Below, in pieces: positions 32,604-49,228 of a stretch of DNA of 64,000 nt (the stretch's first letter is position 1; the number at the start of each line of letters is the position of its first letter). Position numbers and translations under genes: made by a program. The notes under the pieces are model-generated. The model was not told the DNA's origin. It saw only the letters and a program-made list of their open reading frames with translations, and made no database searches. Origin of the DNA: Bacteroidota bacterium (lineage in GTDB: Bacteria; Bacteroidota; Bacteroidia; NS11-12g; UBA955); assembly GCA_023957335.1 (NCBI GenBank), contig JAMLHC010000006.1, forward strand, positions 62,001 through 126,000, written 5' to 3'.

Positions 32604-33296
32604 CTAAGCCATCTTACACATAGACTTTTCTATATTGTCCAATTCCGCTGATGTCAGATGCTTATTTGCCAATGGGAACAAAGTATAATCTTCGCGGTAA
32701 ATGTGTAATTTCAGCATTTCTACCAATTCGCGACCATTTTCATAAGCAGTATCAAAAACAAAGTTCCTTGAATCTATATCATTCAATCGAGTGGCAACAC
32801 CTAACAGATTAAAGGTCAACGCTCCGAGCTGAATAAACTTAATATGGTCATCTTCCATTACATCAATTGCAGTTTTGGGGTTGGCACCTATACTATGTTC
32901 GCCCACCTCTATTAATCTTTGATGCAAAAACGGGAATAAAGCTTTTTCCTCTTTTTGGTTGTGAGGCAAGAGTTTATCATCAAAGAAATTAAAAAATTCT
33001 TTAAAAGTGTCATTGATAAATGTGTCAAGTTTATAGCCATTCTTCTTGAATTGTACCAAGGCTTGTTCAAAACGAGTTATCTTTTCCAAAGCCATTTGAT
33101 GCTCATTCATCAAGATTTGAAGTGCCATTGCAAATTCTTTGAAATTAAGATTGTCAGACACCGGTAATTCGTATGCTGAAGGAGGCTCCATTGGTGTAAG
33201 TTCCTCTTGTCCCAACTCCTTTTCCACATTGCGTTTGAGCGGATCTAATTCGTTGAGTGCTTGTAAATCCAGTCCGTTAGTCTTATGTTGTGTCAT
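32604..33296 (-). CDS. Hemerythrin-domain protein
   Basis: 230 residues. The first ~50 are hydrophilic. Then comes a four-helix bundle with the expected iron ligands: NEHQMALEKI, LLPHNQKEEKALFPFLHQR, MEDDHIKFIQ and KLHIYREDYTLFPLANKH. Related proteins bind a di-iron centre and handle oxygen or nitric oxide. Located in the nitrate operon between narI and narK, it may scavenge NO made during nitrate respiration. This role is inferred from position. Confidence 0.85.
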   Translation of the reverse strand: MTQHKTNGLDLQALNELDPLKRNVEKELGQEELTPMEPPSAYELPVSDNLNFKEFAMALQILMNEHQMALEKITRFEQALVQFKKNGYKLDTFINDTFKEFFNFFDDKLLPHNQKEEKALFPFLHQRLIEVGEHSIGANPKTAIDVMEDDHIKFIQLGALTFNLLGVATRLNDIDSRNFVFDTAYENGRELVEMLKLHIYREDYTLFPLANKHLTSAELDNIEKSMCKMA

Positions 33297-33688: not shown

Positions 33689-34414
33689 TCAATTGTTATT
33701 AGATTTCTTGCCGAAAGAGTGTGCCCGCGAAGTGCGAATTGCTTTTCTGTTCCAATTCCAAATTACTTGCTGATAGTTTCTCCAGAGGTAATCCAGAGGA
33801 TATACCAAGAAGTGCATAAATCTAGTGAATGGAATAAAGGCAATCAGCGAGAAAGCTGACACAACGTGAATTTTGAGAGACCATGAGTTCACACTTGCAA
33901 TGGCATCAATCTGAGGATCAAATACAAAAACAGAGCGCAAATAAGGAGTAAGAAAAGCAGCAAACCATGAGGAACCCCATCGGTTGTGATAGGCTACCAA
34001 CAATCCTGAAATGATTTGAACAAGCAGAATGACAAACACTATTACATCCATTTTGCTGGTTACTATTTGGATTCTACGGTTAGTAAGACGTCTTTGTACC
34101 AACAAAATCACACCCACAAAGGCGCTCAAACCGAAAGAGAATGCGGTTATTTCAAGTATCAACAATCGGACGGGCTCTCCATTCCATGCCAAAACTGCTC
34201 TTGGAAACAAAAAAGCAATCAAGTGCCCGAAAAATAAAATGAAAAGTCCCCAGTGAAACGGTTGACTTCCCCAAAACAGCCTTTTGCCTTCCAGAAACTG
34301 AGATGAAATGGAAGAAACTGAAAACCCTCTGCTTTTATAACGGTATATAGAACCGATGATAAATATCGCAAGCGATACATAAGGCAGAACAGCAAATAAT
34401 AGATAGTTTATCAT
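33689..34414 (-). CDS. narI: Respiratory nitrate reductase gamma subunit (cytochrome b, NarI)
   Basis: 241 residues, five transmembrane helices. Heme b ligands are visible as His in SQPFHWG and FFGHLIAF in the second helix region, and KIHVVSAF and FTRFMHFLVYP in the last helix. It takes electrons from quinol and passes them through NarH to NarG. It lies 2 bp downstream of narJ. Length and topology match E. coli NarI (225). Confidence 0.92.
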   Translation of the reverse strand: MINYLLFAVLPYVSLAIFIIGSIYRYKSRGFSVSSISSQFLEGKRLFWGSQPFHWGLFILFFGHLIAFLFPRAVLAWNGEPVRLLILEITAFSFGLSAFVGVILLVQRRLTNRRIQIVTSKMDVIVFVILLVQIISGLLVAYHNRWGSSWFAAFLTPYLRSVFVFDPQIDAIASVNSWSLKIHVVSAFSLIAFIPFTRFMHFLVYPLDYLWRNYQQVIWNWNRKAIRTSRAHSFGKKSNNN

Positions 34415-34416
34415 AG

Positions 34417-35139
34417 CTAATCTTGTTTATAGTGATTATTACTTTTATTTATTTCAAAAACTTGATTGACACCCATATTCACACTGCTTTTATTAAAAAA
34501 AGATTTGTGATGTTGTTCATCAATAACAGGGTCGAGGGCGGGTGCAAAACTTATATTTTCAAAATCTTTCTCTAAGATTTGCAACAAAGCAGACAGCGCA
34601 TGTTTATATACATTTCCCGCATATAACTCTTCTTGAATGATTGCATAATGACGGTTTTTGAGAATTTTCAGTTTAATATCCATACGTGTCGGCTCAAACT
34701 CTTCCAACATCTTGCGCACACCCGGTATCAATATTTTTATTGCTAATTCATCAATAATTTTAGACTCAAGTGCTTTATCAAAAAATGTCAGCATATTGCT
34801 CAGATTGTCCGGCAAATCAGTGCCGCAGTCATTTCCGATTTTGTCTTGCTCCTGCTTCATATTTACCAAAAAGACACCTCTTTTGTAGTCTTCGCCAAAA
34901 ATCACATAGCCCAAGTCTAAATAACACACAGCTTGTACATCAAAAGTCTTGGTGTATAATTCTCGGAATGTATCTGCATTGTGAGAGTTGATATAATCAA
35001 CAAAAATCTGCATTTCTTTGGCAGCTTCCGGATAAGACTCTATCATCAGTTGGCTGCATTGATTGACAACCAATGGGAATTTCGCATCGGGATATCTGAA
35101 CAAATCAGCCAAAACTTTATAATGAGCAAATTTTCTCAT
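34417..35139 (-). CDS. narJ: Nitrate reductase assembly chaperone NarJ
   Basis: 240 residues from ATG 35139, placed 1 bp after the narH stop; a longer frame would overlap narH. All-helical TorD/NarJ fold with YKVLADLFRYPD at the start, FRELYTKTFDVQAVCYLDLGYVIFG and FFDKALESKI, the usual NarJ landmarks. NarJ loads the Mo cofactor into NarG before membrane docking. Confidence 0.88.
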   Translation of the reverse strand: MRKFAHYKVLADLFRYPDAKFPLVVNQCSQLMIESYPEAAKEMQIFVDYINSHNADTFRELYTKTFDVQAVCYLDLGYVIFGEDYKRGVFLVNMKQEQDKIGNDCGTDLPDNLSNMLTFFDKALESKIIDELAIKILIPGVRKMLEEFEPTRMDIKLKILKNRHYAIIQEELYAGNVYKHALSALLQILEKDFENISFAPALDPVIDEQHHKSFFNKSSVNMGVNQVFEINKSNNHYKQD

Positions 35140-35140
35140 A

Positions 35141-36631
35141 TTACAATCCTCTAACAGGTTTTTCCTTAAATCCAAATCCGGTATTACCTTTCACATCCGC
35201 TGTATTTTCGAGCATTTCAATAGACTCTTCACGATGAGCAGGCGGAATAACAAAACGCTCATCAAATGTAGCCAAAGCCGTAAGCCTAAATATAGCGTCT
35301 GCCATGTCAGCATCTACTTGTGCTTCATTCATAGCAACAGAAATTTCTTCTTTTGCAAGATCGCCTGTTGTTACTCCTCGTCTGTGCAATCTCACAGCCA
35401 TCAGACGTTTCATAACTTCCACAATCTTATCGGTATTGCCGGCAGAAAACAAAGAAGCAAGATACTTCATGGGCAAACGGTTTTTCTCAACTCCATTCCA
35501 AAGCGATTTACTTGTTGAATCGTATTTTCCATCTTGTACAGTTGCCATTGTAGGTAACAAAGCAGGCACATAAAACAAGTTAGGAAGAGTTCTAAACTCA
35601 GGGTGCAACGGTAAAGCGAGTTTCCATACTTTCACAAATTTATAAACCGGAGATTTTTGGGCAGCATCAATTGTAGAATCAGCAATTCCATTCAACTTAG
35701 CTTGTTTAATAACTTCCGGGTCAAATGGGTCTAAATAGATATCCAAATGATTGTCAACAAGCTTATCATCAGCAGAAGCTGCTACATTTTCAATTTTGTC
35801 AGCATCATAGAGCATCACACCTAAATAACGGATTCTGCCAACGCAAGAGTGAAAACATGCCGGTGCTTGTCCGGACTCAAGTCTGGGATAACACAAAACA
35901 CATTTTTCAGATTTACCGGTGTTCCAATTATAATAGCTCTTTTTGTAAGGGCAAGCGGTAACACACATTCTCCAAGCGCGACAACGCTCTTGATTGATAA
36001 GTACAACTCCATCCTCTCCTCTTTTATAGATTGCGCCTGAGGGACAAGCAGCAACACACGCAGGATTCAGACAGTGGTTACAAATTCTGGGTAAATAATG
36101 GAAAGTCATACGCTCTAACTGGAACATGGCTTCTTGTTCAGCAGGTGTTAATTTATCCAGATTGACATCTTGTCGTGCATAATCCGGAGAACCACCCATA
36201 TCATCATCCCAATTTGGACCGGCTTTTACATCAATGTGTTCACCTGTAACCAGAGAAACAGGGCGAGCAGTAGGCTGGTCATCACCTTCGGGAGCAGTAA
36301 ACAAATCTTGATACTTGTATGTCCATGGTTCATAATAATCATCAAGCACGGGTAAATGTGGGTTATGAAAAATATTTTTCAATCCTTTGAACTTCCCTGC
36401 GCCTTTTAGTGAAACCGTATCTCCGTTTTTCTCCCAACCGCCTTTGTATATATCCTGATCTTCCCACTTAGTAGGGTAACCCGTACCCGGTTTTGTTTCC
36501 ACATTATTCCACCACATATACTCTGCACCCTTGCGATCAGTCCAGATATTTTTGCAAGCTATTGAACATGTATGACATCCGATACATTTATCGAGATGAA
36601 AAACCATAGAAACCTGAGATCTAATATCCAT
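35141..36631 (-). CDS. narH: Respiratory nitrate reductase beta subunit (NarH), four Fe-S clusters
   Basis: 496 residues. Four cluster motifs: CIGCHTCSIACKN, ICNHCLNPACVAACPSG, CRAWRMCVTACPYKK (Trp replaces one Cys, so a [3Fe-4S] centre as in E. coli NarH) and KCVLCYPRLESGQAPACFHSCVG. It wires NarI hemes to the NarG active site on the cytoplasmic side. It lies 24 bp downstream of narG. Confidence 0.95.
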   Translation of the reverse strand: MDIRSQVSMVFHLDKCIGCHTCSIACKNIWTDRKGAEYMWWNNVETKPGTGYPTKWEDQDIYKGGWEKNGDTVSLKGAGKFKGLKNIFHNPHLPVLDDYYEPWTYKYQDLFTAPEGDDQPTARPVSLVTGEHIDVKAGPNWDDDMGGSPDYARQDVNLDKLTPAEQEAMFQLERMTFHYLPRICNHCLNPACVAACPSGAIYKRGEDGVVLINQERCRAWRMCVTACPYKKSYYNWNTGKSEKCVLCYPRLESGQAPACFHSCVGRIRYLGVMLYDADKIENVAASADDKLVDNHLDIYLDPFDPEVIKQAKLNGIADSTIDAAQKSPVYKFVKVWKLALPLHPEFRTLPNLFYVPALLPTMATVQDGKYDSTSKSLWNGVEKNRLPMKYLASLFSAGNTDKIVEVMKRLMAVRLHRRGVTTGDLAKEEISVAMNEAQVDADMADAIFRLTALATFDERFVIPPAHREESIEMLENTADVKGNTGFGFKEKPVRGL

Positions 36632-36655
36632 AATTTAGTTTTTTATGTTTAATAA

Positions 36656-39600
36656 TTAAAATTCTACTCTTTCCATTTTCCTAACCAATACGTGTGTATC
36701 TCTGTTAGCTCCCACGGGTCCCCAATAATTGAAGTGAAATGAAAACTGCCCGTACCCCCCCGTCATCAAGTTGGGTTTTAAGTGAACTCTGGTAAAGCTA
36801 TTGTGCCCCCCTGCCCTTCTTCCGCCTCGCTCCTGAGATTTAGGTACAGAATAAGTTCTTTCGGGTGAGTGGTACACAATACAAACACCTTTTGGAATCC
36901 TTGCACTCACACACGCTCTCGTACAATAAACCCCGTGGTCATTATATACCTCAACCCAATCATTGTCTTTAATACCAAGTTCTGCTGCATCTGCTTCACT
37001 AATCCAGCAAGGTTCGATACCGCGAGAAAGTGTCAACATCCTCAATGTATCACCATAGGTGGAATGAATATGCCATTTACCATGAGGAGTAAGCACATTC
37101 AGCATTTTTGCTTTGCCGTCATTGACAGTTTTACGCAAATCTCCATATACTTGAGGAGTTGGCGAAGGTTTATAGGTTGCCAAGTTCTCACCAAATTCGA
37201 GATATCCGTCATGGTCTAAATAAAAATGCTGACGACCGGACAAAGTCCTCCAAGGTACAAGCCTGTCCACGTTATAAGTGTAAGCACAATATGCTCTGCC
37301 GTTATTCATCAAGCCTGACCAAAGAGGTGAATTATTGTAACGCCTGGGCTGAGCTTGTAAATCTTTGTAATCAATCTTTACATCTTTGCTTCCTTCGCCC
37401 AAATCAACCAAATCCAAACCGGTTTTCTTCTCCATGTTTTCATAGGCTCTTACGGTAAGTTTACCATTGGTGAGAGTTGACAATGTAAGTACTGCATTAA
37501 CGGCTTCTACATCTTCTTTGATAGATGGATATTCCACTCCGTTTACTTTCTGAACATGGCGTTTATCCAAAATCATTTCATTGTAAACGTCTTCTGCCAT
37601 ATAGGACACCCCATGCGCTCCCAACGGTTTGGAATGCATATTAGGTCCGAGCGAAATATATTTATTATAAATCTGAGTGTAATCTCGGTCAATAAACACA
37701 AGCTTATGCATTGATTTACCGGGCTCGGGCTCACATTCTCCTTTAGCCCAATCCAACATACGCGGTTGCGTAATTTCATCTGCTGAGTCATGTGACAAAG
37801 GGGCATTTACAACGTCTTTAACAGGCTCGGGCAAATGCGTGCAAGCAAGTTCACTCACTTTCTTTGCTAAAGCTTGAAAAATCTGCCAGTCTGATTTAGA
37901 TTCCCAAACGGGTGCCACAGCAGCGGAAAGCGGGTGTATGAAAGAGTGTAAGTCGGTGGAATTAATATCTGCTTTTTCATACCAAGAAGCGGTTGCCAGC
38001 ACAATATCAGAATACAAAGCAGATGTATCCATACGAAAGTTTATATCCACTATCAAATCCATTTTGCCTTTGGGAGCTTCACGCCATATTAGTTCATGCA
38101 CGTGTGGTTGAGCCACTTCATCAGCAATTTTGTTATTGTGTGTACCTAAATAGTGGTCGAGCATGTATTCATGCCCTTTGGCACTAGACATCAGCGCGTT
38201 TCCACGCCAAATAAACCAATTTCTCGGGAAATTGATTTCATCATCAGGGTCTGCCACTGAGTGCATTAATTCTTTTGATTTAAGTTTATCTACAATATGC
38301 CTCCTGATGCCATCTTCGTCTTTTGCACCGGCAGCTATAGCGTCATTTATAACATCCTGATTGTTCTTGTTATATTGTGGGAAAAAAGGCATCCAACCGT
38401 TTCGCACCGACATGACAGTCCAGTCCGCAGAGTGCATCTTGCCATATTTACTATCTTTTGGGACTTTATTGTATTCAACTTGATTATTATCATACCTCCA
38501 TTGGTCAGAATTGATATAGTGCCAAATGGGAGCCTGCTGTAACCTGTTTGCAGGAATCCAATCCTTTGCTGACATAATGGTTCCCCAAGAATCTACAGGC
38601 GCCAATTTTTCCTGACCTACATAGTGGTTCATTCCTCCTCCGTTTACACCATTACATCCGGTAAGCATCTGAGCCATAATTGCTGCACGATACATCAAAT
38701 TTCCATGAAACCAATGGTTGATAGCTGCACCCACAATTACCATACATTTTCCATTGGTAATTTCAGCTGTATCAGCCCATTCGTGAGCAAACTTAATAAC
38801 GGTGTCTCTACCAACTCCTGTGAATATTTCCTGCCAAGCGGGTGTGTATGCTTGTTTGTCATCGTTGTAGTCAGTCGGATATTCGCCTTGCAATCCTCTG
38901 CCAACACCATATTGCCCCATGGTAAGGTCATAGACTGTGGTTACGGGCACTTTTGTACCATCGATTGTTTCAATTAATTTAACCGGCACACCACGCACAG
39001 CCGTTTTGTCAAGACCAAACTCCAAAAATTCAACATTATAAACTTCATCGTTTTTGTTGAGCAATGTCAGCATGGGTTCATAAGGTTTGTTATCCAAGAA
39101 ATCTTCATATTTAAGATTCCAATTTCCTTTTTTCTCTTCCGCCCAGCGGCTTCCCATGGATCCTTTAGGACAAACAAGATTGCCGGACTTCTCATCAATA
39201 TTGAGAAATTGCCAATCACCATTCTCGACATCCTTATATTTCTTTACTCTGTTCGCTCTCAGCATTCTGCCGGGCTTATAGCAATCACCTGATTTATCAA
39301 GTTCTACCAAAAAAGGACAGTCGGTATAACGTTTTGCATAATCAATAAAATAAGGTACTTGTCTGTCCGCATGGTATTCTTTCAGGATTACATGTGTTAC
39401 TCCCATCCAAAATGCACCGTCAGAGCCTGCATGGCACGGTATCCATTGGTCTGCATGTTTTGCCACCATACTGAAATCGGGCGACATCACTACCGTCTTA
39501 GTCCCATTGTGTTTGGACTCGGAGAAGAAGTGAATATCCGGAGTTCTTGTCATACCTAAATTGGCACCCATGGATACGCAGAATTTGGAGTTGTACCAGT

Positions 39601-40279
39601 CAGCACTTTCGCAAACGTCTGTTTGCTCTCCCCAAACTTCCGGAAATGCAGGAGGCAAATCACAATACCAATCATAGAAACTGAGATTTACACCTCCCAT
39701 TAATTGAAGATACCGTGCACCTGAAGCATAGCTAAGCATGGACATAGCCGGTATTGGCGAAAAACCAATAATTCTGTCCGGTCCATATTTTTTAATGGTA
39801 TAAATATTTGCAGCCGCAATGAGTTCGAGCACTTCATCCCATTTGGCACGTCTGAAACCGCCTTTGCCTCTTGCACGCTGATATCTTTTTCTTTTCTCAG
39901 GGCTATTTTGCAAGTTTGCCCAAGCTTTAACTGGGTCTCCATTAGCATTTTTCTTTTCTTCATTAAACAAATCCATTAAAGCACCGCGCATCAAAGGGTA
40001 TTTTACTCTGATTGGGCTATACAGATACCATGAATAAGAGATTCCTCGCTGACATCCACGCGGTTCGTATGGTGGCAAAGAGTTTTCAAGCAAGGGATAA
40101 TCAAGTGCTTGGGTCTCCCAAACCACAATCCCGTCCTTTACGTGAATATTCCATGAACATCCACCTGTACAGTTCACTCCATGAGTGCTTCGCACCACCT
40201 TATCGTATTGCCAGCGGTTACGATAAAACTCCTCCCATTTTCTGGTTTGTGGAGATATAATGTCTTCTATCCAGCTCAT
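36656..40279 (-). CDS. narG: Respiratory nitrate reductase alpha subunit (NarG), Mo-bisMGD enzyme
   Basis: 1207 residues. The FS0 cluster ligands follow H33-x3-C37-x3-C41-x34-C76, exactly the NarG spacing. [14 protein letters not shown] contains the Asp that ligates molybdenum in NarG. No twin-arginine signal is present, so the site faces the cytoplasm, as in classical NarGHI and unlike periplasmic nitrite oxidoreductases. C-terminal cofactor-binding features include YHSPERTY and the [14 protein letters not shown] stretch. It requires bis-MGD from the moa/mob operon to the left. A cytochrome c gene lies 19 bp upstream. Confidence 0.95.
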
Positions 40280-40298: not shown

Positions 40299-41195
40299 TT
40301 AAATTGATTCGATTTGTCTGTTAAAAATTTCTCTTTTGACGGTGTATTTTTTCCTACCATACCATAAAATCCAATAAATAAGAAGCAGTCCGATTATGCC
40401 ACCGCTACCTCCGTACAATAAAGGATTGAAAGAAGATGCAACCTGATTTGCTTTGTCTTTATCAACTTTGTTTAAAAATGCCACTATATTTCCGATTTCT
40501 TCATCTGTCATCGGATGGTCTTTATAAGATTCTGTCATGGCAGGGAATGGAGGCGCACCCAGAATTCCTTTCAAACCGGCATCTCCTCCCATTCTGCTAA
40601 ACACATCGGTCAAATCTTTTGCTAACAGACCACCTTCAAGCACACCTTTATAATTAATATTATGACATGAAATACATGCAGGTCCGTGGTTTGACAACCT
40701 TTGAATTCCTTCAAAAATAAATTTGCCTTTTTGTATATCCGCCTCGGTTGCGTTATCGGATTCATTTGAAGCTACACTCGCAATTTGAGCATCAGCACCG
40801 GTGTATCCGCCTTTACTTGCTATGAAAGTAAAAATAGCTTTGATATCATTATCTGATAATGCTTGATCCGGCATAATCAAACCGCCAAATTCATCTGAAA
40901 TTGCTTTTGCATCCGGATCGCCACTTTTGATTAGTGTTTGAGAAGATTTGGTCCATTTCAGCAACCAATCTGCTGAACGCAAAGCGGTTACTCCTAATAG
41001 GTCTGGACCTACAAGACGTCCCCCTCCTATTTTATGACACGAAGCACAATTTTTAGTAAATATTTCTTCCCCATTTTGTCCAAAACTCACAGTTGAAATG
41101 CTGAGCATCAGGAATGTCAAAACTAACATTATTAATATTTTATGAGACTCAAAAAGGTTCTTTTGTATGGATTGCAAACCGGTTTTCATAAGCAT
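40299..41195 (-). CDS. Membrane-anchored diheme cytochrome c, first gene of nar operon (NarC-like)
   Basis: 298 residues. Signal peptide (SHKILIMLVLTFLMLSIS...FGQ), a first heme motif CASCHK near residue 51 and a second CISCHN near 174, each in a cytochrome c domain, then a C-terminal transmembrane helix (GIIGLLLIYWILWYG) and a basic tail. Thermus and some other lineages place a diheme cytochrome c (NarC) directly ahead of narG, and this has the same position. It may link the nitrate reductase or other periplasmic reductases to the quinol pool. The start is ATG 41195, with a second ATG two codons later. Confidence 0.82.
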   Translation of the reverse strand: MLMKTGLQSIQKNLFESHKILIMLVLTFLMLSISTVSFGQNGEEIFTKNCASCHKIGGGRLVGPDLLGVTALRSADWLLKWTKSSQTLIKSGDPDAKAISDEFGGLIMPDQALSDNDIKAIFTFIASKGGYTGADAQIASVASNESDNATEADIQKGKFIFEGIQRLSNHGPACISCHNINYKGVLEGGLLAKDLTDVFSRMGGDAGLKGILGAPPFPAMTESYKDHPMTDEEIGNIVAFLNKVDKDKANQVASSFNPLLYGGSGGIIGLLLIYWILWYGRKKYTVKREIFNRQIESI

Positions 41196-41474: not shown

Positions 41475-42227
41475 TTATTTTCTGAGCTGTCTTTTTTGAC
41501 TTGAAATAACAACAAGCAAAATAATTGTTCCGAGTGCAGGAATTAAGAGCAAAAACAAACCGAATTTTAATTTTTTCTTCCCTGTAATCGGGTCATAAGA
41601 GAAACAAGATAAAACCGAATTATTATGAGGCAGTGGATAAGAAATAACAAATTCATTATGAATGGATTTGAGCATAACTTCTAATGCTCTGACATCCCTA
41701 ATCCCGATAAGTTTTTTAATAATATAACCGTTGCCATTGATTCCCACCAACAAAGCATCATGTTCATACTGTCTTGTAACACTGTCCCATTGTGAGTGAA
41801 AACCAACCGATTCAATTAACTCATTAATCTGATAAGTCGTACCAAAGACCCATCTTTCATCATCGTTCAGTCCCAAGAGTTGGGCGTAATTGTTCAAATC
41901 AACTTTAGTATCTGCGGTATCAAAGCTGACAACCAAAACTTTGAACTTTAGCTTAGGATTAAGTCTGGTAATATTCTCTTTTAAATTACTCAATAAAGGA
42001 GAGCACACTCCGGTACAGCGTGTAAAAACCAAAGCAAGGATTAGAGGCTCTCTGTTATAGAGATTCGACAGTTTAAGCTCCTCTCCTTGCGTTGTCTGTA
42101 TTTGAATATTTTCTACCTTTGTATAAAGCCTATCTTCTTCCGACAAATTATACTCAGATGTCTGAGCAAATGAGATTCCTAAGTTAAATAGAACTAATGC
42201 GAAGAGGGCGAAAATACTTTTATGCAT
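41475..42227 (-). CDS. SCO1/SenC-family copper chaperone
   Basis: 250 residues from ATG 42227, chosen because it starts a clear signal peptide (MHKSIFALFALVLFNLG...FAQ). It overlaps the end of the subunit I gene by 34 bp; an upstream alternative would lie wholly inside that gene. Thioredoxin-like domain with the copper motif CTGVC (in FTRCTGVCSP) and the downstream His in YEHDALLVG. A C-terminal transmembrane helix (FGLFLLLIPALGTIILLVV) follows. SCO proteins metallate the CuA site of subunit II, and the partner here has a complete CuA motif. Confidence 0.88.
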   Translation of the reverse strand: MHKSIFALFALVLFNLGISFAQTSEYNLSEEDRLYTKVENIQIQTTQGEELKLSNLYNREPLILALVFTRCTGVCSPLLSNLKENITRLNPKLKFKVLVVSFDTADTKVDLNNYAQLLGLNDDERWVFGTTYQINELIESVGFHSQWDSVTRQYEHDALLVGINGNGYIIKKLIGIRDVRALEVMLKSIHNEFVISYPLPHNNSVLSCFSYDPITGKKKLKFGLFLLLIPALGTIILLVVISSQKRQLRK

Positions 42228-43639
42228 TTTTTGAAAATATCTACAAAGATAAGTATCATCCCCAATAGATATATGATTGCAAACCAGGCTGCTGCAGTGG
42301 CGAACAAAGCGGCTCTGGTAAATTCTGCAGGATAAACTGAATATCTTCTGGGAATTGATTCTGCTCCACCACAATAAAACATCAGGACAAAACCAAAGCC
42401 ACCTACAATTAACAAAGTCAATTTGAGTTTTCTCATTGGGTCTGTATGACTACCTGAAAATTCGTTGGCTACCCATGTAAAGAACCCCAAAATAAGCAAC
42501 ACATTACCTAATGCATTATACGTATGGAAGTGAGCAGGCACCCATAGTGTGTTGTGCAAGAAAATATTATTAGAAATAGTTGAGTCAATCAATGCGCCTA
42601 CTCCCCCAATAATCCATCCGGTAATACCAATGAAAAATAGAAGATTTGTAATTGTCCATTTGATTTTGTGCCCATATAACAACACTATTACACTTATGAT
42701 GGTTACAACTGCAGAAGGAATACTTGCAAAATAAGATGCAAACTGCCCAAACATTTGAAGTCCAAGCGGTTGCACAAAATCCATATATAAGTGATGGAAG
42801 TATGCTGTTAACACAAACAACAAAGTAAAATTCCAACCCAAAGAAACATACCAAGTGGTTTTGAACTTAGGACGTCCGCTTATTTCAGGTAACAACTCAT
42901 ACACAATTGCCAACCCAAGATAAAGAGACTCATTGGCAATAGTATGACCGAAGAAATAAATTAAGTTTTTCATTAATAATGGGTCGCTTTTAAATGCACC
43001 ATCAGAATACCATTCTGCGAAAGATAAAATTAGGATTACAACTGCGGTCAACAAACAAAGAACAACGCCTACAAGCGAAATTGCTGAAATCAATACCAAA
43101 GGAGGTGTTTGAACTTCGGGAGTTTGTTTAGAAAGATGTTGCCACGCAAATGTTTCTCTAAGAGAATATTTCTTAAAAATAGCAACTAATAAGCCTATTG
43201 ACCAAACTAACCATCCTACACCCAATACAGTCAAACTCCAAAAAAACAATGGTGTAGCCCAAGACTCCCATTCACCAATGTTCAGAAATGGCAATGGATA
43301 TAAGAAAGTCCATCCGGCATGAAAATGACCGATGAAGGTTGAAATGTAAAACATTATAACTCCAATGATAGTCAAAACAAAAGCAAACTTGCTTAAACCA
43401 GCCCCCACATTTACATAGCGATTAAGCAAATAATGAACTCCGACCATTCCGGCAACAGCCCAAATAGCAATCATAGTCATTCCATGAGTTGTCATTAATC
43501 CATAAAACTTGCCATCATCCATACTGATAACATTTCCCTGATTAAAGCGCATGGTAATACCCAGAATAATAGCGGTAAAGAATAAAAGCAGGATTGTGAT
43601 AATCCAAGTAGATGTGATTCTTTTCAATGATATATTCAT
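42194..43639 (-). CDS. Heme-copper enzyme subunit I lacking the catalytic Tyr: probable nitric oxide reductase of a non-canonical family
   Basis: 481 residues, about 12 helices. Heme and CuB ligands are all present: H52 (THGMTM), H232 (FFGHTIANES), H282/H283 (AYFHHLYMD), H370 and H372 (PAHFHTYN). In oxygen-reducing oxidases the residue four after the first CuB His is the crosslinked Tyr (HPEVY or HPIVY); here it is Asn236, followed by Glu237. Canonical cNOR/qNOR have Glu at that place (HLWVEG), so this matches neither group. It resembles the alternative NOR families with a CuA subunit. Downstream is SCO1; upstream are the CuA subunit and an NsrR-like regulator. NO reduction is inferred; oxygen reduction cannot be excluded. 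Confidence 0.75.
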   Translation of the reverse strand: MNISLKRITSTWIITILLLFFTAIILGITMRFNQGNVISMDDGKFYGLMTTHGMTMIAIWAVAGMVGVHYLLNRYVNVGAGLSKFAFVLTIIGVIMFYISTFIGHFHAGWTFLYPLPFLNIGEWESWATPLFFWSLTVLGVGWLVWSIGLLVAIFKKYSLRETFAWQHLSKQTPEVQTPPLVLISAISLVGVVLCLLTAVVILILSFAEWYSDGAFKSDPLLMKNLIYFFGHTIANESLYLGLAIVYELLPEISGRPKFKTTWYVSLGWNFTLLFVLTAYFHHLYMDFVQPLGLQMFGQFASYFASIPSAVVTIISVIVLLYGHKIKWTITNLLFFIGITGWIIGGVGALIDSTISNNIFLHNTLWVPAHFHTYNALGNVLLILGFFTWVANEFSGSHTDPMRKLKLTLLIVGGFGFVLMFYCGGAESIPRRYSVYPAEFTRAALFATAAAWFAIIYLLGMILIFVDIFKKCIKVFSPSSH

Positions 43640-43655
43640 AAGTCTGTTATTTTAA

Positions 43656-44192
43656 TTATTTTACGATAAATTCTCCTCTCATTATCTGATGCCCTACTCC
43701 ACAAAACTCAGTACATAATACACTATAGGTACCAGGTTCATTGAACACCCAACGCAAACGATTCACATATCCCGGCATCGCTTGTGATTGAGTGATTAAC
43801 TTTGCTTTATCATTATAGATAGCAAAACCGTGCGTAACATCAATACTGGTTACTCTGAATTCCACCATTTTACCTGCCGGAATCTCAACTGAATAGTTGT
43901 CATTCTCATCACTTATACCAAAAGCAAACTTGCCGGATGACACATTGACCACCATTGCGGGAGAATCATTTTTGTATAAAAAATAAGGTGATCTGGGGAT
44001 TGTGATTGACATCAAAATCAGCAGTACACCACCCCAAAGTAATAAGAAGTAAAACCTCATTCTTAAGGGATTCTTAATTCCTTCGCCTTCCTCATCACCT
44101 TTCATTGTGCTCCGATATATCATATAAGAAATCAATGAAATAGCCACGGCACAGATAAGAAATAACGCTAAAACGAACTCTTGTCCTTTCAT
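43656..44192 (-). CDS. CuA-containing subunit II of the heme-copper enzyme
   Basis: 178 residues. Two N-terminal transmembrane helices, then a cupredoxin domain with the complete CuA ligand set: H121 (DVTHGFAIYN), then C160, C164, H168 and M171 in CTEFCGVGHQIM. Electrons would therefore come from a soluble or anchored cytochrome c or cupredoxin, not from quinol. It lies 16 bp upstream of subunit I and is the first gene of the three-gene operon, which has its own promoter and operator. Confidence 0.85.
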   Translation of the reverse strand: MKGQEFVLALFLICAVAISLISYMIYRSTMKGDEEGEGIKNPLRMRFYFLLLWGGVLLILMSITIPRSPYFLYKNDSPAMVVNVSSGKFAFGISDENDNYSVEIPAGKMVEFRVTSIDVTHGFAIYNDKAKLITQSQAMPGYVNRLRWVFNEPGTYSVLCTEFCGVGHQIMRGEFIVK

Positions 44193-44273: not shown

Positions 44274-44299
44274 AATAAAGGACAAGGTTGTCCTTTATT
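44274..44299. promoter_or_regulatory. 26-bp perfect inverted repeat, probable Rrf2/NsrR-like operator
   Basis: Two perfect 12-bp arms (AATAAAGGACAA / TTGTCCTTTATT) separated by GG. It overlaps the -7 to -33 zone of the NOR-like promoter and is 75 bp from the 3' end of the Rrf2-type regulator gene. A degenerate copy of the same length precedes the regulator's own operon at 49275-49300. Confidence 0.75.
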
Positions 44300-44374: not shown

Positions 44375-44806
44375 TCACCCTTTGAGAAATGCCTTTCCAA
44401 CGTTCAAATCCCTATATAAATCACCAATCGTTTTTAACTTACAAAAACGCTTAAACGACTCTCTCACAGGCTTAAAATCTTTATGAATAGGGCAAGGATG
44501 CTGATCACTGCATGTACTAAGACCCAAACCACATCTCTCAAAATAATCATCCCCTTCTACTGCTTTAACAATAAGGATTAGAGGTGCACTTTCTTGAGCT
44601 TTGGTTATAAAAAATCCACCGTTAGGACCTTTGATACTGCTAATGATAGCAAGCTTAGTTAACTTTTGTAAAACCTTTCCAATGGTGTGCTCGCTTTCAT
44701 TGATTTGAGCTGCAATCTCTTTAATCCCGGACTTTTTTTTATCCGGAAATTTGGAAGCGATATAAGTTACCGCTTTTATAGCGGTTTGGCAAGTGATACT
44801 CAACAT
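44375..44806 (-). CDS. Rrf2-family regulator, NsrR/IscR-like with three cysteines
   Basis: 143 residues. The winged helix (IKEIAAQINESEHTIGKVLQKLTK and GPNGGFFI) is typical of Rrf2. The cluster loop is CGLGLSTCSDQHPCPIH, i.e. C-x6-C-x5-C, close to the C-x5-C-x5-C of NsrR and IscR. NsrR senses NO with its Fe-S cluster and represses NO-detoxification genes. It is the last gene of the RIC/DUF2249 operon and lies next to the NOR-like operon. NO sensing is inferred from neighbours; an IscR role is possible but no isc genes are near. Confidence 0.85.
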   Translation of the reverse strand: MLSITCQTAIKAVTYIASKFPDKKKSGIKEIAAQINESEHTIGKVLQKLTKLAIISSIKGPNGGFFITKAQESAPLILIVKAVEGDDYFERCGLGLSTCSDQHPCPIHKDFKPVRESFKRFCKLKTIGDLYRDLNVGKAFLKG

Positions 44807-44809
44807 AGG

Positions 44810-45133
44810 TTACATTCCCAAATATTGCTTCCCTTGTTCCGATACAGCGTCATAACTCCAAGGCGGATCAAAAGTTAACTTAACTTCTATTTGATAGCCC
44901 GGAAAAGACGCTTCCAACGAAGAAGTTGTATCGCCCACAATAGCATCGCCCATGGGGCAGAACTCGGTTGTCAGAGTCATTGTACACAAGACTTTTTTCT
45001 TTTCTTCGTCAAAATAAAGGTCATAGACAAGCCCAAGATCTACAATATTTAATCCTATTTCAGGATCTATCACATATTGAAGACCTGCCAAAGCGATAGT
45101 ACTCTTTATTTCGTTGTTATTAGATACATTCAT
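44810..45133 (-). CDS. MIP18/SufT-like (DUF59) protein
   Basis: 107 residues. DUF59 signature VIDPEIGLNIVDLGLVYDL, then TLTTEFCPMGDAI with the conserved Cys, and a C-terminal FDPPWSYDAVSEQGK. Members assist Fe-S cluster loading (SufT, MIP18) or belong to PaaD-like assembly. It lies between the NnrS-like gene (4-bp overlap) and the Rrf2 gene (3-bp gap). In an NO-response operon, Fe-S repair is a sensible role. Confidence 0.85.
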   Translation of the reverse strand: MNVSNNNEIKSTIALAGLQYVIDPEIGLNIVDLGLVYDLYFDEEKKKVLCTMTLTTEFCPMGDAIVGDTTSSLEASFPGYQIEVKLTFDPPWSYDAVSEQGKQYLGM

Positions 45134-46425
45134 AATTGAATTGGTTTGTGATTGATTACTTTAAAAACATTGATATTATACAATATTGCTGTTATCAGCA
45201 ACAAAAATGACCCAAATTTGATTAAAATCAATAGCCCTGACAAGATTCCGGATGCAAATACGAACAAGCCTGTCAGATAGCACACCCCCATCACATTAAA
45301 CACCTTGTCATTAAACAAGTCTTTGGGGTTTGGCGTTTTGCCTAATGCAGAACGTTTGCGGTATGCTTTATTCCACGCAATGAATGGCAATGTTTTGAAT
45401 GTCATCCCCAAAATAATGGCTGTCATCCAACCAAAGAATATCATAAAGCCGTATGTCATCACAACATTCAGGGGTATTTCAGAAGAAGTGGCGGAACTCA
45501 GCAACACAATGACCAAAAGGACGATTGGAATCAAAAACATGATTGCCGCTAATATTGCCAACTGTGTCTGATAATCCACTCTTTTTCTCAACCGTCCTTT
45601 GTATGCTTTGATACAAAAATAAATGAACATAGAACACCCCATTAACACCAATATAAATGGCAGAAATAACAGCCATTTTTGTTCATAAAAGAAAAGGAAT
45701 AAAACTGTGTAAAGCAATATTCCCAAATTCACCAAAAAATTGATAATTCTCAAGAGTTTTTTGTTGGTGTATTTAGAAATCATAAACATAGGTATCAAAC
45801 GAGAGCCCACGCCCATTACCAATAACAAGAACCAACCCACGATACCCAGGTGGGCATGCAAAGGGAGATAGTGTGTTGCGTCAAAGGGTAAAAAATCAAG
45901 ACTGAAATCAAAAACCAATGTTACACCTAATCCTACGGTAATCAACAACCATACAATTGAAGAAAAGATAAAAAGTGTATGAACATTTTTTTTCTTGGAA
46001 TTAAGAATACTCTTAAGAACATTTACAAAATATGCCATTAAGCCCAAAAGTATTAAGCTTCCTCCCACTTCTGCCGTCAAACCGAATTCATGCATATAGA
46101 AACTATATACAAGAATCGGAATGCCTATACCGGCAAAAACAAAAGAGGTATTTGCGAGTTTATTACTATAAAGTTCTCCTTCTATAAGCACCGGCACCAA
46201 CTGATGACTAGCACCCAGAATAATCATGGTTCCCCAACCTAATGCCATAGAATGGGTAATAGCTAATATATTAAACTGAAAATAGTGTCCGAAAAAGTAA
46301 TTTCCCGACAACAACAGCAATACAGTAGCAATTAAAAACCACACGGCTGCATAAGCATAAAAAGGAATAACAACCTTATAGGAAGTAGTTTTTACAAGAT
46401 TTGTATCAAAAGGAGAAGCGAACAT
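45130..46425 (-). CDS. Twelve-helix NnrS-like / heme-copper-oxidase-I-like membrane protein
   Basis: 431 residues, about twelve transmembrane helices. Histidine-bearing helices ITHSMALGWGTMIILGASHQLVPV and LHAHLGIVGWFLLLVMGVGSRLIPMF look like the H-rich helices of NnrS and of oxidase subunit I remnants. The CuB HH pair and the C-terminal HxH of true oxidases are not visible. NnrS proteins accompany NO metabolism and relieve NO stress. It overlaps the DUF59 gene and abuts the DUF1858 gene. Family placement is by pattern only. Confidence 0.6.
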   Translation of the reverse strand: MFASPFDTNLVKTTSYKVVIPFYAYAAVWFLIATVLLLLSGNYFFGHYFQFNILAITHSMALGWGTMIILGASHQLVPVLIEGELYSNKLANTSFVFAGIGIPILVYSFYMHEFGLTAEVGGSLILLGLMAYFVNVLKSILNSKKKNVHTLFIFSSIVWLLITVGLGVTLVFDFSLDFLPFDATHYLPLHAHLGIVGWFLLLVMGVGSRLIPMFMISKYTNKKLLRIINFLVNLGILLYTVLFLFFYEQKWLLFLPFILVLMGCSMFIYFCIKAYKGRLRKRVDYQTQLAILAAIMFLIPIVLLVIVLLSSATSSEIPLNVVMTYGFMIFFGWMTAIILGMTFKTLPFIAWNKAYRKRSALGKTPNPKDLFNDKVFNVMGVCYLTGLFVFASGILSGLLILIKFGSFLLLITAILYNINVFKVINHKPIQL

Positions 46426-46427
46426 CC

Positions 46428-47234
46428 TTACTTCTTAAATATTAAAATTCGCACATCACCATCGGTAATTTCATTAATTCTATAGTCCAACCCTCTATCT
46501 TGCAACTCAGGAAGCAGAAACACCGGAATTCGTTTGTGATACACATAAACCGCTCTGTCAGATTGGAGTTTGTCGCATGCTTCGAGCACCATCATCATAG
46601 GTAAAGGGGGTTCCATTTTTTCGACTCTGACTTCATCCAATTTGCCTTCGAACTTAGCTAACATTTCCTGCCAACCTGCTGCATCATTTTTGATTTCGGC
46701 TTTAATTTCACCAGCACCGGAAGTGTTGTAAAGATAGGTGTGTACAAGATTTGAATTAACAATTTCAGTATAAGCAACGAATCCTCTTTTTTCAAGAATC
46801 ATAATTACCGGTGTAGGTTCAAATGTATTGATGATTTTGAGTGCTTGTTGGGCATTCAGCTTGTTTACATTCATCATAATAGTATTAAGCGGGTCGCCAC
46901 CGGAGTCAAGGATAGGTCTAACATCTAATTCCACTACATTTTCAGGTTTCAGATTCTTAACAAATTCCGGCATTGGGCTGGTACTGCCTTCGTGCTCTTC
47001 TTTATAGTTGCTGTCAATCTCAAAACCCAATGGTTTCAATTTTGCAAAAAAATCATCTACTTTCACTCCCCCTACTTTGCTTGCCATACTGATGGAAGTC
47101 CTTGCAGCCATGAGCTTTCTCAAAAGCGGGTTTCGGAGTTTTGTAAATTTGGGTGAAATACTAATAATAGCTTCCAAAGCATCGGGATGAGCTTTGAGGA
47201 TTTGCGAAATCTTAGTGCCTGAATTTATTAACAT
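46428..47234 (-). CDS. DUF1858-DUF2249 protein of the NO-response operon
   Basis: 268 residues. The first ~75 resemble DUF1858 (KISQILKAHPDALEAIISISPKF and PLLRKLMAARTSISMASKVGG). A TusA/SirA-like DUF2249 domain follows (VVELDVRPILDSGGDPLNTIM...EPTPVIMILEKRGF), and then a second, weaker domain ending in ITDGDVRILIFKK. Such proteins often accompany RIC-type repair proteins and NOR genes. Biochemical function is unknown. The gene overlaps the upstream RIC gene by 7 bp and is 2 bp from the NnrS-like gene. Confidence 0.75.
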   Translation of the reverse strand: MLINSGTKISQILKAHPDALEAIISISPKFTKLRNPLLRKLMAARTSISMASKVGGVKVDDFFAKLKPLGFEIDSNYKEEHEGSTSPMPEFVKNLKPENVVELDVRPILDSGGDPLNTIMMNVNKLNAQQALKIINTFEPTPVIMILEKRGFVAYTEIVNSNLVHTYLYNTSGAGEIKAEIKNDAAGWQEMLAKFEGKLDEVRVEKMEPPLPMMMVLEACDKLQSDRAVYVYHKRIPVFLLPELQDRGLDYRINEITDGDVRILIFKK

Positions 47235-49228
47235 GATGAATGATGGTTAGCACCTTCTAATTCTATTGCCTTAGGGAACAAGATATTGTTTTCCAAATGT
47301 GCGTGAACAAACATATCTGCTTCCAAATCCTGCAAGAGTTTATAAACAAGTTCGTAGCTCGCACACGAATCATTAGGCAAGGTGTAGTTATTAGTCAACT
47401 TGCGCAAATTTAGCATATAATCTTTGTATGTATCATGTTCCATTTCGAGCATATTAATTGGCTCGGCAATGGATTTGAACGCAGGGTTTTCAACGGTTTT
47501 AGCTTGTGCTTTTGCACTTACTATTTGTTTGACAAAAGGAAACAGAATAGTTTCTTCTTTTTGCAAATGAGCCAAAAGTGCATTGGTAAATTTATCAATA
47601 TTGGCATATATCTCTTCCAATTCGGGGTGCGCCTTCACATGTTGGTTCAACACATTTTTGGAGGCTGTGCGCAAGTCGGGCACAATTTGCCTTATAAAAG
47701 AATGATGAGTATTTACAACATAATCAGACAGAAAATCTAAGTTCCAATCATTATAGGGCAAGGGGCGGGGTTGATTGCCTTGACCTTTTTCTATTTGTTG
47801 GAGTTCCTGCTCTACAAGAGTTACATCAACTCCAAGGGAATCACATGCTTCTTTGATAGTTTTCTTACCTGAGAAGCCATAGTCGAGTTTGTACTTGGCA
47901 AATACAGCCGTTTTTCTAAAATCCTTAGCCGCAATTTCACCCAGAGTTTCATCTTTTTCACCTGAATTGCGTTTGGTAATTTTTACTCTCCACCACTTTG
48001 GACCTTGCTCCAAGTATTCCCAAGAAAAAATATTTCCACGTTCTGCCATCAACTGATAATACAAGGGTTTGGGATCGTGGTCATTGTACAAGGTGAGCCA
48101 TCTTCCTCCTTCAAGTGCATCAAATTGCTTAAAAATAGTTGGGTGTTTGTGGGCAGGTGGTAACTGGGTAACATCTAATTTATTTTCATCATCTTCACTT
48201 TGAGGCGTTGATGCTGAGGCTTGTTGCTTGGCATTTCTACCAATCTTCACTCTCCACCATTGCGGACCTTTTTCCAAATATTCCCATGAAAATTCATCCC
48301 CTCGTGTTTGTTCTAATTGATAATACAAAGGCACGGGGTCATGGTCATTTTTCAGAATAAAAAACTCACCGACAGCCAGACTGTCAATCTTTTCAAAGAT
48401 TTTAGCATGTTTCACCGGAGGAGGTAGTTGCGTAGCGTCCAAAACTCCTTCTTCTTCGCTATGAGCAGATTCTCCGCCATGAAGCATTTTTTTTGCAATT
48501 CTGATAATCCACCAATCGGGTCCTGATTGCAAATAATCCCAAGTAAAAATATCGCCTCTGTTCTGATGTAATTGATGATACAAGGGCTTTGGGTCATGGT
48601 CATTTTTCAGAATGAAACTCTCCCCTTCTCGATGGTCGTCAAAGAAAGCGAAAATACTTGCGTGCTTGTATTGCGGGTCTATCAAGGTTGCGTTCAAAAT
48701 ATATTCACCATTGGCGGCTTTGCTCAATGCAGGATGCCCTTGCTTTGGAGCTTCTTTGGTAATCCTGATTCTCCACCATTGCGGACCTTGCTCAAGGTAT
48801 TCCCAAGAAAACACATTTCCTCGTGTTTGTTGCAATTGATAATGTAGGGGTTTGGGGTCATGGTCGTTTTGTAGGATAAAGCTCTCACCTTCTCTCAAAT
48901 TATCAAATTGCGCAAAAATGGTGGCATGCTTGTATTGTGGTTCAATCAAAGTTGCATTGAGCACCACCTCATCAGCAGCTGCTTGTTTGGTCTTGTGTTT
49001 GCCAATTCTGATTTTCCATACTGCCGGACCTTCTTCCAAGTATTCCCATGTGAAGGTTTCACCATTATCCGCTTTTAACTGATAATAAAGTGGTTTGGGG
49101 TCATGATCATTTTGAAGGATAAAACTTTCCCCTTCTTTTAAATCATTAAAGTATTGAAACACTGTGGAGTGTTTTAGTCTTGGCTCAAGTTCAGACACCA
49201 CCAATATTTTGTTTGCAGAATTTTCCAT
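47228..49228 (-). CDS. RIC/YtfE-type di-iron repair protein with five N-terminal DUF2249 domains
   Basis: 666 residues. Five tandem ~85-residue DUF2249 units occupy residues ~10-420, each with the core NDHDPxPLxxQL and a WEYLExGPxWWRIRI-like strand. Residues ~435-480 are the ScdA_N/DUF542 domain, but the Cys-Cys of YtfE (DFCCGGK) reads DYGFSGK here. Residues ~497-660 are a hemerythrin-like di-iron domain with THHSF, LLAHLQKEETILFPF, EMEHDTYKDY and VHAHLENNILFP. YtfE/RIC repairs Fe-S proteins damaged by NO. This is first in an operon ending with the Rrf2 regulator. The repeat number and lost cysteines are unusual. Confidence 0.88.
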   Translation of the reverse strand: MENSANKILVVSELEPRLKHSTVFQYFNDLKEGESFILQNDHDPKPLYYQLKADNGETFTWEYLEEGPAVWKIRIGKHKTKQAAADEVVLNATLIEPQYKHATIFAQFDNLREGESFILQNDHDPKPLHYQLQQTRGNVFSWEYLEQGPQWWRIRITKEAPKQGHPALSKAANGEYILNATLIDPQYKHASIFAFFDDHREGESFILKNDHDPKPLYHQLHQNRGDIFTWDYLQSGPDWWIIRIAKKMLHGGESAHSEEEGVLDATQLPPPVKHAKIFEKIDSLAVGEFFILKNDHDPVPLYYQLEQTRGDEFSWEYLEKGPQWWRVKIGRNAKQQASASTPQSEDDENKLDVTQLPPAHKHPTIFKQFDALEGGRWLTLYNDHDPKPLYYQLMAERGNIFSWEYLEQGPKWWRVKITKRNSGEKDETLGEIAAKDFRKTAVFAKYKLDYGFSGKKTIKEACDSLGVDVTLVEQELQQIEKGQGNQPRPLPYNDWNLDFLSDYVVNTHHSFIRQIVPDLRTASKNVLNQHVKAHPELEEIYANIDKFTNALLAHLQKEETILFPFVKQIVSAKAQAKTVENPAFKSIAEPINMLEMEHDTYKDYMLNLRKLTNNYTLPNDSCASYELVYKLLQDLEADMFVHAHLENNILFPKAIELEGANHHSSC
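47969..49207 (-). repeat. Five tandem DUF2249-coding repeats inside the RIC-like gene
   Basis: Each unit is about 250-265 bp. The core NDHDP lies near residues 40, 121, 209, 294 and 382. Units 2 and 3 are most alike around EPQYKHA/DPQYKHA, and units 4 and 5 share QLPP linkers, suggesting stepwise duplication. Linkers of 10-30 charged, Ala/Ser-rich residues separate units. Confidence 0.9.

What the first reader, a model, noticed from the sequence alone, without database searches (positions are those of the whole stretch)
41475..44192. CuA-type heme-copper enzyme with Asn at the catalytic tyrosine position: probable non-canonical NO reductase
All metal ligands are present, but the residue four after the first CuB histidine is Asn236 (then Glu237) instead of the Tyr of oxidases or the Glu of cNOR/qNOR. 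The neighbours are an NsrR-like regulator, an NnrS-like protein and a RIC-type repair protein. Alternative NOR families with CuA subunits exist, and this may be one of them or a further variant.
Basis: partly seen in the sequence, partly recalled or inferred. Interest (0 to 1): 0.75.

Follow-up and report, generated by a model that had tools for sequence, protein, structure and literature searches.

The report
An sNOR-type nitric oxide reductase operon
This bacterium carries an alternative nitric oxide reductase of an already described kind (sNOR, genes norSY-senC), the likeliest enzyme, together with one other candidate, for the NO-removal step of an otherwise complete denitrification pathway that lacks the textbook enzyme.

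Summary
At 41475-44192 (- strand) lie a CuA subunit II, a heme-copper subunit I with all six metal-binding histidines and Asn236 where oxidases have the cross-linked Tyr, and an SCO/SenC copper chaperone. The reading as a non-canonical NO reductase is supported, but it is not a further variant. Asn at that position, a two-helix CuA subunit, a 12-helix subunit I and a linked senC are the published marks of sNOR (NorSY-SenC). On trees it forms, with about 80 homologues from at least ten phyla, the sister clade of ammonia-oxidiser and Ruegeria sNOR. Asn236 is invariant in 85 of 85 sequences; Glu237 occurs in only 15. The same genome has narGHI, nirK and clade II nosZ but no canonical norB, so NO reduction falls to this enzyme and/or a second, Gln-type (eNOR-like) enzyme. 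New here are the lineage, the two alternative NORs in one denitrifier, and a genus-conserved 26-bp palindrome before the operon. Activity is inferred, not shown; a high-affinity oxidase role remains a live rival because one transcriptomic study proposed it for sNOR. Whether this clade is labelled sNOR or nNOR in the 2024 classification could not be tested.

The parts
43656..44192 (-). subunit II (CoxB-like), 178 aa, two N-terminal TM helices and CuA cupredoxin domain
   Evidence: PF00116 37.7 bits; CuA ligands H..CxExCxxxHxxM and 2 TM segments; homologue directly upstream of subunit I in 77 of 79 family loci, the other two being cut contigs
42194..43639 (-). subunit I (heme-copper NO reductase catalytic subunit of sNOR type), 481 aa; six His ligands, Asn236 at the catalytic Tyr position
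   Evidence: PF00115 175 bits; N236 85/85; tree with sNOR; fold
41475..42227 (-). SCO1/SenC copper chaperone, 250 aa, overlaps the end of subunit I by 34 bases
   Evidence: PF02630 30.2 bits; start; SCO detected next to 56 of 79 family loci
44274..44299 (.). 26-bp perfect palindrome AATAAAGGACAA-GG-TTGTCCTTTATT between the Rrf2 gene and subunit II: probable operator
   Evidence: chance expectation 0.14 sites per window at 3 mismatches, one exact site found; the only exact site in the genome; conserved in the congener
44375..44806 (-). Rrf2-family regulator with three Cys (C-x6-C-x5-C), NsrR/IscR-like
   Evidence: PF02082 72.3 bits; below all specific NCBIfam cut-offs
44810..45133 (-). SufT/DUF59-type Fe-S assembly protein
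   Evidence: PF01883 40 bits; TIGR03406 81.7 bits, cut-off 202.6
45130..46425 (-). membrane protein, weakly NnrS-like
   Evidence: PF05940 E=1.3 only; orthologues (E under 1e-120) sit beside two other family loci, L060 and L067
46428..47234 (-). DUF1858 + DUF2249 protein
47228..49228 (-). RIC-type di-iron Fe-S repair protein: five DUF2249 repeats + ScdA_N + hemerythrin
   Evidence: TIGR03652 185 bits, cut-off 204.7
40299..41195 (-). membrane-anchored cytochrome c with two CxxCH motifs, directly upstream of narG; candidate electron donor
   Evidence: PF00034 65.7 bits; CASCH and CISCH in the sequence
33689..40279 (-). narGHJI respiratory nitrate reductase (narG 36656-40279, narH 35141-36631, probable narJ 34417-35139, narI 33689-34414)
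   Evidence: Pfam hits for G, H and I; the J reading is by position only

Best explanation
It is an sNOR-type (NorSY-SenC) nitric oxide reductase. Electrons from a periplasmic or membrane cytochrome c enter CuA in subunit II, pass to the low-spin heme in subunit I and on to the binuclear high-spin heme/CuB site, where 2 NO + 2 e- + 2 H+ give N2O + H2O. With Asn236 in place of the cross-linked Tyr, the site lacks the redox-active Tyr used to split O2 and is suited to the two-electron NO chemistry. SCO loads CuA. An Rrf2-family Fe-S regulator next door, through a palindromic site before subunit II, probably switches the operon on when NO appears. Together with NarGHI, NirK and NosZ it would complete denitrification to N2. 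Shown: gene content, ligands, ancestry, gene order, absence of canonical norB. Inferred: substrate, electron donor, regulation.
For: Joint clade with ammonia-oxidiser and Ruegeria sNOR at 100/99 support, apart from aa3, ba3, cbb3 and Gln-type enzymes; same result without the longest rows. Two of the sNOR reference genomes carry amoA. Asn at +4 in all 85 aligned and in all eight Burkholderiales sNOR. Published hallmark: sNOR = Asn (PMC8756737); linked senC in Nitrosococcus and Nitrosomonas (PMC3772326, PMC4940428); short 12-helix suI plus two-helix suII plus SenC in Bacillus 'type II qCuANOR' (PMC3475470). Ruegeria locus shows Rrf2, suII, suI, SCO side by side. RIC near 13 and Rrf2 near 10 of 79 loci. 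Genome: nirK 332 bits (cut-off 296), nosZ 933 bits (cut-off 625), no nirS, five heme-copper genes and none a canonical norB. In 21 loci subunit II shares one reading frame with a cytochrome c domain, which supports cytochrome c as donor.
Against: The papers read here report no purified sNOR of this type; NO reduction by it rests on indirect evidence, and one transcriptomic study argues for an oxidase role (PMC6967387). The genome has a second candidate NOR (L003, Gln-type), so the 'missing step' argument does not single this enzyme out. The window clade is sister to, not nested in, the named sNOR sequences. The Rrf2 protein is not specifically NsrR.
Confidence: 0.82

Rival explanations
1. It is mainly a high-affinity terminal oxidase that works without the cross-linked Tyr and tolerates NO, as proposed for N. 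europaea sNOR.
For: sNOR transcripts rise under O2 limitation in N. europaea and the authors propose an oxidase role (PMC6967387); complete CuA and CuB ligand sets; invariant Tyr240, Tyr247 and Tyr280 in the clade might stand in.
Against: No Tyr at the A/B-family position, nor at the helix-VII position used by cbb3 (Leu277/Val276). Tyr280 is Phe in one ammonia-oxidiser sNOR (L125). The genome already has aa3 and cbb3 oxidases. Neighbours are NO-response and nitrate respiration genes.
Confidence: 0.1
2. It belongs to a separately named sister family (nNOR of Murali et al. 2024) or to an unnamed one, with the same NO reductase function.
For: The clade is a supported sister (97/92) of the named sNOR sequences with 32-36% identity between them; an nNOR family is listed beside sNOR in papers that use that classification.
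Against: All residue and gene-linkage marks match sNOR. The nNOR reference sequences and defining residues could not be obtained (the PNAS paper is not held).
Confidence: 0.35
3. It serves NO detoxification rather than respiratory denitrification.
For: The immediate neighbours are repair and stress-type genes: RIC, Rrf2, DUF2249.
Against: It lies just upstream of narGHJI, and the genome has nirK and nosZ.
Confidence: 0.25

Closest known systems
sNOR (NorSY-SenC) of ammonia-oxidising bacteria and Ruegeria/Silicibacter pomeroyi
   Same: Asn at the Tyr position, CuA subunit II, adjacent SCO/SenC, order suII-suI-SCO and adjacent Rrf2 gene as in Ruegeria, common clade
   Different: 32-36% identity; sister clade; the orf1 gene of the ammonia oxidisers was not seen after senC here; +5 residue is Glu rather than mostly Ala
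type II qCuANOR (sNOR) of Bacillus azotoformans and Geobacillus
   Same: Asn, 12-helix subunit I of about 490 aa, two-helix CuA subunit II, SenC downstream (PMC3475470)
   Different: no sequence of it could be fetched for the tree; no 4-5-helix third-subunit gene seen here
bNOR (CuANOR, type I qCuANOR) of Bacillus azotoformans
   Same: CuA subunit, Asn at the Tyr position, SenC linked
   Different: bNOR has a 13-helix ba3-like subunit I and a one-helix subunit II (PMC3475470); here 12 and 2
ba3 oxidase of Thermus thermophilus (closest solved enzyme by sequence profile)
   Same: fold, six His, CuA
   Different: cross-linking Tyr replaced by Asn236; the Tyr seven residues further on (K-channel, from own knowledge) is Leu243

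Membership tests
sNOR (NorSY-SenC) | heme-copper subunit I with six His ligands | tested here: met
sNOR (NorSY-SenC) | Asn in place of the cross-linked Tyr | tested here: met
   N236, 85/85; opposite the cross-linking Tyr of ba3; hallmark from PMC8756737
sNOR (NorSY-SenC) | CuA cupredoxin subunit II encoded next to it | tested here: met
sNOR (NorSY-SenC) | linked SenC/SCO gene | tested here: met
sNOR (NorSY-SenC) | common ancestry with ammonia-oxidiser and Ruegeria sNOR to the exclusion of oxidases | tested here: met
sNOR (NorSY-SenC) | inside the sNOR boundary of the 2024 classification (not nNOR) | not testable with these tools
   reference set not held
sNOR (NorSY-SenC) | NO reductase activity | not testable with these tools
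   needs expression or a knockout
nNOR | grouping with the nNOR reference sequences of the 2024 classification | not testable with these tools
   paper and reference alignment not held; papers that use the classes give no definition
bNOR (CuANOR) | ba3-like 13-helix subunit I and one-helix subunit II | tested here: not met
   12 and 2 predicted helices
eNOR | Gln at the Tyr position | tested here: not met
   Asn; the Gln-type enzyme is another gene, L003
cNOR/qNOR | Glu at the Tyr position | tested here: not met
   Asn, with a CuA subunit; apart from qNOR-like rows on the tree
A- or B-family O2 reductase | cross-linked Tyr at +4 of the first CuB His | tested here: not met
   Asn236
NsrR (the Rrf2 neighbour) | score over the NCBIfam NsrR equivalog cut-off | tested here: not met
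   30.3 bits, cut-off 182; membership of the Rrf2 superfamily is met by Pfam

The most novel reading that the evidence does not exclude
The window's subclade, with Glu237 next to Asn236, is a functionally distinct NO reductase in which the acidic residue supplies protons to, or helps ligate, the non-heme metal, converging on the active-site Glu of cNOR, and perhaps binds Fe rather than Cu.
Probability: 0.06. Interest if true: 0.5.

Novelty: new member of a known kind. Interest (0 to 1): 0.3.

Why it matters
Database models score this enzyme as a cytochrome c oxidase subunit (closest NCBIfam model: CtaD/CoxA; Ruegeria's copy is annotated 'cbb3-type'), so norB-based surveys would score this complete denitrifier as lacking NO reduction. 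The clade is spread over Bacteroidota, Acidobacteriota, Kapabacteria, Pseudomonadota and others, so N2O budgets drawn from genomes could miss it. The problem has already been described for Bacillota and in broad surveys (PMC11388526, PMC12569097), so this adds a lineage rather than a concept.

Tried and rejected
1. Cross-linked Tyr on another helix: helix-VII positions used by cbb3 are Leu277/Val276 here, and the nearby Tyr280 is not conserved in all sNOR (L125 has Phe). 2. Glu237 as a hallmark: only 15 of 85. 3. The palindrome as a family-wide operator: found only in the genus pair, not before other family operons, and no second good site in the genome. 4. Murali et al. 2024 (PNAS) could not be read, and four papers that use its classes give no definition of nNOR. 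6. More named sNOR on plasmids: only Ruegeria, Parasedimentitalea and Thermomicrobium. 7. The Foldseek and VIA lists show the general heme-copper fold; A-family chains lead, cbb3 and a NOR (4xyd) also appear, so fold comparison does not sort the subfamily.

Full report
What is there. On the minus strand the window holds a three-gene operon: CuA subunit II (43656-44192), heme-copper subunit I (42194-43639, 16 bases further on) and an SCO/SenC chaperone (41475-42227, overlapping subunit I by 34 bases). Subunit I has all six histidines and, four residues after the first CuB histidine, Asn236 where oxidases carry the cross-linked Tyr; the ba3 profile alignment puts N236 opposite that Tyr without a gap. 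A predicted model (pLDDT 86) has the heme-copper oxidase fold.

Relatives. Among 57 genomes searched (the window's own and others of its genus, family and order) only the one congener also has the gene (91% identical), which suggests acquisition by transfer (inference). A scan of GTDB genomes gave 80 loci, 39-51% identical apart from the congener's copy at 91%, in Bacteroidota, Acidobacteriota, Kapabacteria/Kryptonia, Calditrichota, Planctomycetota, Spirochaetota, Myxococcota, Bdellovibrionota, Pseudomonadota, Verrucomicrobiota, Actinomycetota and Methylomirabilota. With these and three plasmid-borne copies, Asn236 is invariant in 85 of 85, as are Tyr240, Tyr247, Tyr280 and Asp287; Glu237 is found in 15, all of them close relatives. 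The CuA subunit is directly upstream in 77 of 79 loci, the other two being cut contigs; SCO is near in 56, RIC in 13, Rrf2 in 10, narG or narH in a few. In 21 loci the CuA subunit shares a reading frame with a cytochrome c domain. The CuA ligand pattern holds in all but one of 80 subunit II sequences once His-Asp and His-Asn are allowed; the exception, L086, looks frame-shifted.

Filing. Named sNOR sequences were brought in from Ruegeria pomeroyi (Silicibacter is listed as an sNOR organism in PMC8756737) and from Burkholderiales genomes, two of which carry amoA and so are ammonia oxidisers. In a tree with aa3, ba3, cbb3, qNOR-like and Gln-type enzymes, the window clade (97/92) and the sNOR clade (100/100) are sisters on a long branch at 100/99; leaving out the long rows gives the same answer. 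Published traits of sNOR - Asn, CuA subunit, senC, and for the Geobacillus/Bacillus type II enzyme a 12-helix subunit I and two-helix subunit II - are all met. I therefore file it as sNOR-type and leave open only whether the 2024 classification calls this clade sNOR or nNOR.

Physiology. The genome (2.77 Mb, seven contigs) has five PF00115 genes: aa3, cbb3, this one, a Gln-type enzyme (L003) and a degenerate C-family-like protein (L005); none is a canonical norB. NirK and clade II NosZ pass their cut-offs and NirS is absent. narG, narH and narI lie just downstream of the operon. The pathway nitrate to N2 is thus complete only if this enzyme and/or the Gln-type enzyme reduces NO.

Regulation. 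Between the Rrf2 gene and subunit II is a perfect 26-bp palindrome, kept in the congener (its two central bases apart) while most of the surrounding intergenic sequence has changed, and unique in the genome. It is the likely operator, probably for the neighbouring three-Cys Rrf2 protein; this is inference.

Limits. No activity data; literature on sNOR function is itself divided (PMC6967387).

Noticed in passing
G000:C1:198609-200300 (L003, L144, L148): A second alternative-NOR candidate in the same genome: CuA + cytochrome c subunit, subunit I with Gln at the Tyr position (GHSSQQ, the eNOR mark), SCO, and a cytochrome b/ferredoxin protein, next to a Crp/FNR-like gene. Its low-spin heme His is Lys (GHFK) here and in the congener, while Burkholderiales relatives keep GHFH.
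   Followed up: partly
G000:C6:32619-33818 (L005, L146): A 440-aa C-family-like heme-copper protein without the first CuB His (WKSYGS) and without the low-spin His after the high-spin one (GHTM). Homologues about 50% identical lie upstream of the sNOR cluster in two Bacteroidota genomes (L015, L017). Function unclear.
   Followed up: partly
window 47228-49228: RIC-type repair protein fused to five DUF2249 repeats.
   Followed up: no
window 44274-44299: 26-bp perfect palindrome, conserved in the congener and not found before other family operons.
   Followed up: yes
L018 (Candidatus Methylomirabilis), L014 (Acidobacteria): The nearest copies outside the congener on the tree come from other phyla, 49-50% identical: horizontal spread of this NOR, including into a genome with many heme-copper genes.
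   Followed up: no
window 32604-33296: Single-domain hemerythrin protein between narI and an MFS transporter (probable NarK).
   Followed up: no
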